A stretch of DNA of 64,000 nt from an uncultured Clostridium sp. (lineage in GTDB: Bacteria > Bacillota > Clostridia > Lachnospirales > Lachnospiraceae), in assembly GCA_945915475.1 (NCBI GenBank), contig CAMEFI010000005.1, forward strand, positions 1 to 64,000. The letters run 5' to 3'. Positions 44,846-62,445 of the stretch are shown piece after piece. The position numbers and the translations under genes are program-made. The stretch's first letter is position 1. Every line of letters begins with the position of its first letter. A model generated the notes under the pieces. That model was not told the DNA's origin and searched no databases. It saw only the letters and a program-made list of their open reading frames with translations.

Positions 44846-44874
44846 TTGACCAATATGCTTAGATAGAGTATGAT
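44846..44874 (+). promoter_or_regulatory. Promoter for the SAM riboswitch-metK unit
   Basis: TTGACC (44846-44851) and TATGAT (44869-44874) are spaced by 17 bp, with the riboswitch starting about 40 nt downstream. Confidence 0.75.
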
Positions 44875-44917: not shown

Positions 44918-45082
44918 CTCTTATTCAGAGTGGTGGAGTCAGAAGGGACTGAGAAGCCACGGCAACCCCATGTACATGGAAGGTGCCGGCCTGAGGCGGG
45001 CGATATTTCGCATCGATCAATAAGAGGATTTGAATATAGTGAGCTCATCAACTTCAAATCCTCTCGGATTTGAAGTTTTTTG
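44918..45082 (+). promoter_or_regulatory. SAM-I (S-box) riboswitch with terminator
   Basis: The aptamer (44918-45026) is closed by P1, CTCTTATT with AATAAGAG. It holds the S-box core words GTGGTGGAG, ACTGAGAAGCC-CGGCAACC and GGTGCC. The expression platform has a terminator, ACTTCAAATCC/GGATTTGAAGT plus TTTTTT (45051-45081). An antiterminator pairs GAGGATTTGAA (45024-45034) with TTCAAATCCTC (45053-45063). The antiterminator overlaps the 3' strand of P1, so bound S-adenosylmethionine should favour termination. It controls metK, about 310 nt downstream. Confidence 0.92.
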
Positions 45083-45086
45083 TATA

Positions 45087-45215
45087 GGTTTATTTCCTGA
45101 GAAATGCGTAGCATTTCTCAGGGTTGGAAAGATGTTTTCACACAGGGCAAGCTTGCTTGCATCGTGTGAGAATATCTTTCTAACCTGAGGATGGTACATC
45201 CTTAAGGAATAAACC
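45087..45215 (+). repeat. Large four-way-junction structured element between riboswitch and metK
   Basis: The outer stem pairs GGTTTATTTCCT (45087-45098) with AGGAATAAACC (45205-45215), with one bulge. Three arms branch inside: GAGAAATGC-gta-GCATTTCTC (45099-45119), a 22-bp arm 45122-45143 with 45164-45185 tipped by GCAAGC-TT-GCTTGC, and AGGATG-gta-CATCCT (45188-45202). In the long arm all three departures from Watson-Crick pairing are G-T pairs. No coding frame is present. It may be a mobile repeat or a structured leader RNA. Confidence 0.75.
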
Positions 45216-45279
45216 GGGAGAAGAAATCTTCGCAATCAGTAGCGAAGTTGTGAAGGGGATGAAGCGAACGCACAACACC

Positions 45280-45347
45280 GAGTAAGCTTTGCTTACGAGG
45301 TGAATCAATCTACGAGATGAATCAATCTACGAAGTGAATGCACTTAC
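45280..45347 (+). repeat. Four 17-bp tandem units before metK
   Basis: Units at 45280, 45297, 45314 and 45331 each begin GAG or GAA and end TAC. Units 2 and 3 (GAGGTGAATCAATCTAC and GAGATGAATCAATCTAC) differ at one base. The array is followed by a C7 tract and the metK ribosome binding site. Confidence 0.7.
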
Positions 45348-45388
45348 CCCCCCACTCACAGTTATCACATTTTTTAAGGAGGAATAAA

Positions 45389-46576
45389 ATGGACAAATTA
45401 ATTTTTACATCTGAGTCCGTAACGGAAGGACATCCGGATAAGATTTGTGATCAGATTTCGGATGCAGTATTAGACGCATTAATGGAACAGGATCCCAACA
45501 GCCGTGTTGCCTGCGAGACAGCAATTACAACCGGTCTTGTATTAGTAATGGGTGAGATTTCAACAAAGGGATATGTAGATATCCAGAAAATTGTTCGCGA
45601 AACAATCCGTGAGATTGGATATGACCGTGCAAAATACGGATTTGATTGTGACACTTGTGGAGTCATCACTGCAATTGATGAGCAGTCCAGTGATATCGCC
45701 ATGGGTGTTGACAAAGCATTAGAGGCAAAGGAAAACCAGATGAGCGATGAGGATATCGAAGCAATCGGTGCCGGGGATCAGGGTATGATGTTTGGTTATG
45801 CAACAAACGAGACAGAAGAATATATGCCATATCCAATCAGTCTTGCACATAAGCTTGCAAGAAGACTTACCGAGGTTCGTAAGGATGGAACCCTTCCGTA
45901 TCTGCGTCCGGATGGAAAGACACAGGTTTCTGTGGAGTATGATGAAGCTGGTAAGCCGGTTCGCCTGGAGGCTGTGGTTCTTTCTACCCAGCATGATGCA
46001 GAGGTGACCCAGGAGCAGATTCATAAGGATATCAAGAAGTATGTATTTGATGAGATTCTTCCGGCAGATATGGTAGATGAGAATACCAAGTTCTTCATCA
46101 ACCCAACGGGACGTTTTGTGATTGGTGGACCGAATGGTGATTCCGGTCTTACCGGTCGTAAAATTATAGTTGACACATATGGTGGATATGCCCGTCATGG
46201 TGGTGGAGCATTTTCCGGTAAGGACTGTACAAAGGTAGACCGTTCCGCTGCTTATGCTGCAAGATATGTAGCAAAGAATATTGTAGCTGCCGGATTAGCT
46301 GATAAATGTGAGATTCAGTTATCCTATGCCATTGGCGTTGCCCGTCCAACATCCATCCGTGTGGATACCTTTGGTACAAGCAAGTTAACAGAGACGGAAC
46401 TGGTAGAGATTGTTCGTGAGAATTTTGATCTTCGTCCGGCTGGTATCATTAAGATGCTGAATCTTCGTCGTCCGATTTACAAACAGACAGCTGCGTATGG
46501 TCATTTTGGAAGAACTGATCTGGATCTGCCATGGGAGAAATTAGACATGGTGGATACATTGAAGAAATATCTGTAA
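45389..46576 (+). CDS. metK: S-adenosylmethionine synthetase
   Basis: This 395-residue enzyme makes SAM from methionine and ATP. Motifs are [19 protein letters not shown], the ATP-binding [12 protein letters not shown] and the phosphate loop [19 protein letters not shown], all intact. ATG 45389 has AAGGAGG 6 nt upstream. An upstream in-frame start at 45338 reads through the C-rich tract and is rejected. It is controlled by the SAM-I riboswitch and ends in a strong terminator, so it is a single-gene unit. Confidence 0.97.
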
Positions 46577-57338: not shown

Positions 57339-57393
57339 AATTATATATGCTACAATGAAGACACTTTCACCTGCTTGCAAAGGTGAAAGTGTC
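57327..57393 (+). promoter_or_regulatory. Promoter with a perfect hairpin at the start of transcription
   Basis: TTGACG (57327-57332) and TACAAT (57351-57356) are spaced by 18 bp. GACACTTTCACCT (57360-57372) and AGGTGAAAGTGTC (57381-57393) form a perfect 13-bp inverted repeat right at the expected start of the transcript. It has no T-run, so an operator or 5' stabilising hairpin is more likely than a terminator. Confidence 0.6.
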
Positions 57394-57491
57394 GAATGGG
57401 ATCATATAATAGAATGGTAGCGTCAAAAATGGGAATTGCCAGGCTATACAACAGATTTTTGCTGGCGTAATTCGAATAAAGTGTGGTAAAG

Positions 57492-59747: not shown

Positions 59748-59925
59748 GTGTTACACATATATCTCATGACTAAAGTTACGTGTGTTTTGTGTCAAATCAT
59801 AAAGCAGAATATCTTAATATTTTTATCTTTTAAGAAACTATAAAATCTGTTATAGTAAGGAATAATAGGATGTGAGTGTCAAAAGGGATGTTTGCCACTT
59901 ACTATGATGTATCAAGGAGAGCGAT

Positions 59926-62372: not shown

Positions 62373-62445
62373 AGAGAATTCCAGGTTTTTGAAAATGGGC
62401 TTTTGACACCCTAATCATAATAGAAAAAGAAAGTGAGAAAATAGT

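What the first reader, a model, noticed from the sequence alone, without database searches (positions are those of the whole stretch)
45087..45215. Four-way-junction element between the SAM riboswitch and metK
The 129-nt segment folds into a closing stem, two short arms with identical gta loops and a 22-pair arm. All three non-Watson-Crick positions of that arm are G-T pairs, which keep pairing in RNA but not in duplex DNA. It lies in the metK leader, after the riboswitch terminator, so it is transcribed only when SAM is low. It may be a second regulatory RNA or a new type of mobile repeat.
Basis: partly seen in the sequence, partly recalled or inferred. Interest (0 to 1): 0.7.

Follow-up and report, generated by a model that had tools for sequence, protein, structure and literature searches.

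The report
RNA element that follows transcript ends
The folded segment before metK is a diverged copy of a scattered RNA element found across a family of gut bacteria, which tends to sit just after a transcription stop signal or a gene's stop codon; it is probably not a private control switch of metK.

Summary
Observation confirmed: window 45087-45215 (+) folds into a four-way junction (-72 kcal/mol, z -13.5), just behind the SAM-riboswitch terminator. It is not metK-specific.

One other genome (G397) has the fold in its metK leader, 68% identical and partly compensated. A model from these two finds the fold behind rplL in the window's own genome. A family model without metK copies (16 sequences, 58 of 65 pairs changed on both sides) finds the window at 56.2 bits, other strand 20.7, and hits at least 66 of 397 genomes of the family, Lachnospiraceae by a named record of G397.

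Rfam: 0 of 15 strong loci match Clostridiales-1 (RF01699), the nearest relative; one of 14 others does.

Copies sit in sense behind an intrinsic terminator (SAM riboswitch, T-box, tRNA) or at a stop codon: 25 of 34 loci not used to form the rule, reverse strand 7 of 34, random noncoding-like positions 49 of 156.

Best reading: a dispersing RNA element that lands at transcript 3' ends. Movement and any effect on metK are inferred.

The parts
44846..44874 (+). sigma-70-like promoter (TTGACC-17-TATGAT) upstream of the riboswitch
   Evidence: consensus match only
44918..45026 (+). SAM riboswitch aptamer (RF00162)
   Evidence: 64.7 bits (gathering 44.4)
45050..45080 (+). intrinsic terminator of the riboswitch: 12-pair stem 45050-45077, then T-tract; the element starts directly behind it
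45083..45239 (+). span matched by family model R3 (56.2 bits, E 1.4e-14)
   Evidence: filters off (L069 1498-1654); the model was built without metK copies
45087..45096 (+). closing stem, 5' strand (pairs with 45206-45215)
45097..45121 (+). arm 1, 11 pairs, GUA loop
45122..45185 (+). arm 2: 22 pairs, internal loop, 5-pair tip
45151..45156 (+). G-CUUG-C cap of arm 2; in 1.248 Mb of the genome CUUG is the loop of 6 of 42 strong tetraloop hairpins and of 36 of 11965 tetraloop hairpins overall (both strands counted)
45186..45204 (+). arm 3, 8 pairs, GUA loop
45206..45215 (+). closing stem, 3' strand
45262..45302 (+). displaced 3' module: GCGAACGCACAACACCGAG... with the tandem-GA hairpin 45276-45302; by eye like the 3' end of other members
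   Evidence: weak R3 partial match 45245-45304, 19.4 bits, E 0.0013
45294..45327 (+). two 17-nt direct repeats (94% identical) starting in the 3' strand of the tandem-GA hairpin
45389..46576 (+). metK coding sequence; ribosome-binding site aaggagg 45376-45382 read by eye

Best explanation
The segment is a diverged member, or sister branch, of a dispersed structured-RNA element family of Lachnospiraceae. Shown: a common fold (matched spans roughly 100-210 nt: closing stem, short arm, long arm capped by G-CUUG-C in most copies, second short arm, then a tandem-GA hairpin), kept by compensatory changes, with more G-U than A-C on the sense strand; several copies per genome in many genomes; patchy presence at orthologous sites; in most copies sense placement directly behind an intrinsic terminator or at a stop codon. 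Inferred: the element spreads by copying itself to the 3' ends of transcription units, guided by terminator T-tracts or transcript ends, and the RNA fold is needed for that or for its upkeep. In the window it landed behind the SAM-riboswitch terminator, so it should be transcribed only when the riboswitch lets RNA polymerase through; it would then be a structured passenger in the metK 5' leader, not a sensor.
For: R1, from the two metK copies only, finds L180 behind rplL in the same genome (45.5 bits, E 5.4e-10 over 805 kb) and 9 of 18 R2-found loci (E 8e-13 to 3e-5). R2, from three rplL copies only, finds the window (43.4 bits) and G397 (38.8 bits) with filters off. R3, without metK copies, finds the window at 56.2 bits, 20.7 on the other strand. 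Covariation: 15 of 70 pairs changed on both sides in 3 rplL copies, slid controls at most 4; 199 cells in 16 copies, slid controls 23-35. G-U 76, A-C 14. R2 matches 16 of 26 genus genomes at E 0.1, R3 66 of 397 family genomes at E 1e-6. Placement: set 1, 16 of 18, reverse strand 3 of 18; set 2, 25 of 34, reverse strand 7 of 34; random noncoding-like positions 49 of 156. T-box leaders end 14-23 nt before L291 and L338, L348, L349, L350. Patchy sites: metK 2 of 24, rplL 3 full and 1 degenerate of 21.
Against: R2 with default filters missed the window. The window lacks two common features: the 5' motif and a GA hairpin joined to the closing stem. R1 also gives a Clostridiales-1 locus, L037, 25.4 bits (E 5.6e-5), so its weakest matches do not separate the families. 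No partner enzyme was sought, no target-site duplication is visible at the window copy, and copies in G393 are 67-79% identical, so movement is inferred. Nine of 34 set-2 loci fail the placement test; set 2 holds orthologous pairs (L295/L296, L311/L297); the random rate of the loose test is high, and 10 of 19 Clostridiales-1 copies pass it too. In a mixed set of 30 elements, 21 of them Clostridiales-1, the nearest upstream open frame is on the same strand in only 15 of 28 (crude frames). A6 and A7 are fitted to the model, which favours the structure.
Confidence: 0.62

Rival explanations
1. A host-adaptive 3'-end RNA element: a stable fold that genomes keep at the 3' ends of busy genes and behind attenuators, to protect transcripts from 3' exonucleases, act as a fail-safe terminator or damp read-through. 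Copies spread by rare duplication, not by an active mobile system.
For: Upstream genes include ppdK, transketolase-like, EF-P, GroEL, S9 and EF-Tu and rplL; that these are highly expressed is recalled knowledge. Strong compensated structure. At rplL of G409 no simple terminator follows the element (by eye), while most non-carriers have one (by eye).
Against: Missing at most orthologous sites read (22 of 24 metK leaders; 17 of 21 rplL loci). Behind a terminator it lies outside the terminated RNA, so it cannot protect that RNA (inference).
Confidence: 0.25
2. A metK-specific second regulatory RNA acting after the SAM riboswitch.
For: Position in the leader; same locus in two species, 10 of 56 pairs changed on both sides.
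Against: 2 of 24 genus metK leaders; same fold behind rplL in the same genome and at many unrelated loci.
Confidence: 0.05
3. A DNA-level palindromic repeat (miniature transposon) whose paired changes come from palindrome correction, with no role as RNA.
For: Four near-identical Clostridiales-1 copies in the same genome are 202-203-bp units with imperfect terminal inverted repeats and 5-bp flanking repeats. The window also folds as DNA.
Against: G-U 76 against A-C 14 on the sense strand, in a model-fitted alignment. Models score much higher on one strand (141 against 65 bits; 195 against 68). Sense placement. No flanking repeat seen at the window copy.
Confidence: 0.08

Closest known systems
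Clostridiales-1 RNA (Rfam RF01699)
   Same: Four-way layout, long arm capped by G-CUUG-C, GA-rich side arms; dispersed in the same genus, over cut-off in 15 of 26 genomes; present in the metK leader slot of G399 and G405. L342 reaches both models (R3 51.1 bits; RF01699 49.8 bits).
   Different: The window scores 34.8 bits, gathering score 48. 0 of 15 strong family loci match RF01699 at E 0.01. Order and content of the arms differ; Clostridiales-1 copies often match R3 only over the long arm.
Group IIC introns (bacterial retroelements)
   Same: [quoted passage not shown] many family copies sit directly behind terminator T-tracts.
   Different: The element is far smaller; the window scan shows no Rfam intron match, domain V was not searched for as such, and many copies sit at stop codons.
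REP/BIME-type and MITE-type palindromic repeats
   Same: Dispersed, structured, mostly between genes (recalled).
   Different: Multi-branched with compensated arms and placed in sense next to terminators or stop codons; no search was made with REP or MITE families.

Membership tests
New four-way-junction family (model R3) | Matches a model built without metK copies, on the sense strand | tested here: met
   56.2 bits, E 1.4e-14; other strand 20.7
New four-way-junction family (model R3) | Four-way junction with short arm, long arm, short arm in that order | tested here: met
New four-way-junction family (model R3) | Sense placement directly behind a terminator or at a stop codon | tested here: met
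   terminator stem ends at 45077, T-tract follows
New four-way-junction family (model R3) | Common but not universal: 5' motif like RCAATGAGCC, and a GA hairpin joined to the closing stem | tested here: not met
   no such motif at the window start; the GA hairpin begins 60 nt after the closing stem. Other members also lack the motif (L305, L306). Hence a diverged member or sister branch
Clostridiales-1 RNA (RF01699) | Gathering score of 48 bits | tested here: not met
   34.8 bits
SAM riboswitch (second copy) | RF00162 match within the element | tested here: not met
   only 44918-45026 matches in the window; none in 45060-45380 up to E 10
MITE | Terminal inverted repeats with target-site duplication | tested here: inconclusive
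   the closing stem gives inverted ends; no flanking duplication seen by eye; exact ends unknown
Group IIC intron | Domain V and intron-encoded reverse transcriptase | not tested
   no dedicated search; Rfam scan of the window found only the SAM riboswitch

The most novel reading that the evidence does not exclude
A small non-autonomous RNA-mediated mobile element that targets the 3' ends of transcripts: it inserts in sense orientation at intrinsic-terminator T-tracts or stop codons, perhaps through a reverse-transcribed copy. This would explain the placement, the 5'-truncated tandem copies of its 3' module, and two young duplicates that carry about 25 nt of the upstream gene's tail.
Probability: 0.25. 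Interest if true: 0.85.

Novelty: new variant of a known kind. Interest (0 to 1): 0.7.

Why it matters
It gives a strongly compensated RNA fold, spread over many genera of one bacterial family and not covered by an Rfam family in nearly all loci scanned, with a sharp placement tendency. It puts Clostridiales-1 RNA (listed in 2010 as a probable RNA, not cis-regulatory; PMC2864571, passage) in a wider class of dispersing elements. Behind regulated terminators (SAM riboswitch, T-box) such an element enters the leader of the controlled gene, so it could change expression without touching the sensor.

Tried and rejected
Sequence searches with the element alone said little: one copy in its own genome; in 397 genomes only short matches, best other E 4.4e-5 over 23 nt; none in phage or plasmid records. 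R1 through the genome search missed the rplL copy that direct cmsearch found, so the tool's first look loses members; its G410 match there (29.5 bits) is a plain hairpin between convergent genes. R1 in the family matched 7 of 397 genomes including its own; two of the matches (L076, L078) resurface weakly with R3. Tandem-GA hairpins as a mark of their own: rejected, 8 found and 13 in one Markov shuffle per strand in 461 kb of G000, 4 and 3 in 309 kb of G410. An exact pattern for the arm-2 tip over the genome collection gave 5 records, of which only L133 (the G397 sequence) shows the fold. MAFFT alignments of metK with rplL copies misplaced the arms and were not used. The first G-U/A-C count (49:27) held both strands of some elements and was replaced. 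By the repeat test the window's 3' module is not repeated (score 7); it only has the 17-nt repeats. Ten viral contigs sharing a 16-base motif hold no R3 match at E 0.001.

Paper searches for an earlier description (listings) showed none that I recognised. PMC2864571, PMC8040213, PMC2267715 and PMC4424553 were seen as found passages only. PMC8040213 reports 16,482 candidate RNAs from human microbiomes in tables not opened here, so an overlap is possible.

Full report
What was checked. By sequence it is single-copy in its own genome.

Same locus in relatives. metK was matched in 26 of 26 genomes of the genus, in G414 only partly. Of 24 main metK leaders printed (L031-L054; L040 is cut by a contig end, L055 and L056 could not be read), 2 have the element: the window and G397 (L033; its public record is an uncultured Lachnospiraceae bacterium, RUG10817). 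G399 and G405 have a true Clostridiales-1 RNA in the same slot (115-116 bits). The rest have bare leaders (for example L032, L034, L035), other inserts (L042) or no SAM riboswitch, by eye. The two element copies are 68% identical, against 62% at third codon positions of metK and 90% for riboswitch plus terminator. Of 56 pairs 30 are the same, 8 changed on one side, 10 on both and 8 broken in that alignment.

From one locus to a family. R1, built from these two, matched L180, a stretch of the window's own genome directly behind rplL (45.5 bits, E 5.4e-10 over 805 kb); it gave no strong match in a further 823 kb and 400 kb. The rplL protein matched in 22 of 26 genomes. Among 21 rplL loci read the fold follows rplL in G000, G409 and G418, in degenerate form in G397 (58.1 bits with R2), and not in the other 17. 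The three full copies gave R2: 98.5% of cells paired, 15 of 70 pairs changed on both sides, slid controls at most 4. R2 matched 16 of 26 genus genomes at E 0.1. Sixteen strong sense matches gave A6: 94.2% of cells paired, 58 of 65 pairs with a two-sided change, 199 such cells against 23-35 for slid partners. R3 from A6, with no metK copy, finds the window at 56.2 bits and G397 at 41.1 with filters off. It matches 66 of 397 family genomes and 63 of 334 genera at E 1e-6; only 6 candidates per genome were scored, so this is a lower bound.

Rfam. The window gives a sub-threshold Clostridiales-1 match (34.8, gathering 48 bits). Of 15 strong family loci none matches that family at E 0.01; two show sub-threshold matches to unrelated families. 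Of 14 further loci one, L342, passes Clostridiales-1 (49.8 bits) and also R3 (51.1 bits). I read the two families as distant relatives.

Placement. In set 1 (18 loci, from which the rule was formed) 16 pass an automatic test for a same-strand stop codon or intrinsic terminator at the element's start; on the reverse strand 3. The two that fail (L302, L304) follow a ppdK-like tail whose open frame was too short for the test. In set 2 (34 loci from the 36 sources; L298 dropped as the same place as L340, L344 as partial, a second L336 match and reverse matches not used) 25 pass, reverse strand 7. By eye three of the nine failures (L319, L333, L341) follow a T-tract or a tRNA. Random positions in the genome sample: 532 of 3000; noncoding-like ones 49 of 156, terminator alone 8 of 156; terminator alone in set 2 is 10 of 34. 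Clostridiales-1 copies pass in 10 of 19. Upstream proteins named: pyruvate phosphate dikinase, transketolase-like, EF-P, GroEL, S9, EF-Tu, dGTPase-like, a carboxylase subunit; two of ten had no match. Downstream of four terminator-class copies: trpE, asnS, pheS, DAHP synthase. T-box models end 14-23 nt before L291, L338, L348, L349 and L350. tRNAs end within 50 nt upstream of L293 and L313, L325, L333 and one of two L351 copies.

RNA or DNA. In A6 G-U pairs number 76 and A-C 14; one conserved G-U column supplies 15 of the 76, and the alignment is fitted to the model. Models score much higher on the sense strand. CUUG is the loop of 6 of 42 strong tetraloop hairpins in 1.248 Mb, 36 of 11965 overall.

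Signs of dispersal. G393 holds six copies, 67-79% identical, five of six directly behind a terminator by eye. In G221 and G405 a second copy shares about 25 nt of the upstream gene's tail (tuf, ppdK) and then diverges. The 3' module recurs downstream in 9 of 38 members and upstream in 0. Four near-identical Clostridiales-1 copies in the window's genome are 202-203-bp units with 5-bp flanking repeats.

Conclusion. That the window element belongs to this family, as a diverged member or sister branch, is well supported. The placement rule is supported with controls. Movement, its mechanism and any effect on metK are inference.

Noticed in passing
L112-L115 (G000 C9, C23, C11, C1): Four near-identical 202-203-bp Clostridiales-1 units (TGATATA...CACATCA) with unrelated flanks, imperfect terminal inverted repeats and 5-bp flanking repeats (TGATT once, TAATA three times): Clostridiales-1 looks like a MITE here.
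   Followed up: partly
window 59868-59885 and 62400-62417: Near-copies of a recurrent half-palindrome, TGATGTGAGTGTCAAAAG, beside genes; 16 matches in the genome with up to 2 mismatches, 8 of them in the four units above, 1 in the backward control. Operator or small repeat.
   Followed up: no
L360 (G405) and L353 (G221): Second element copies that share the last ~25 nt of ppdK or tuf before diverging.
   Followed up: partly
L038 1301-1492 (-): A further R3 match (39.5 bits) just behind metK in G405, whose metK leader holds a Clostridiales-1 RNA.
   Followed up: no
L042 (G410 metK leader): A large nested palindrome of other sequence between the SAM-riboswitch terminator and metK.
   Followed up: no
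window 57340-57410: A strong hairpin holding GCTTGC in its loop region, without the four-way fold.
   Followed up: no
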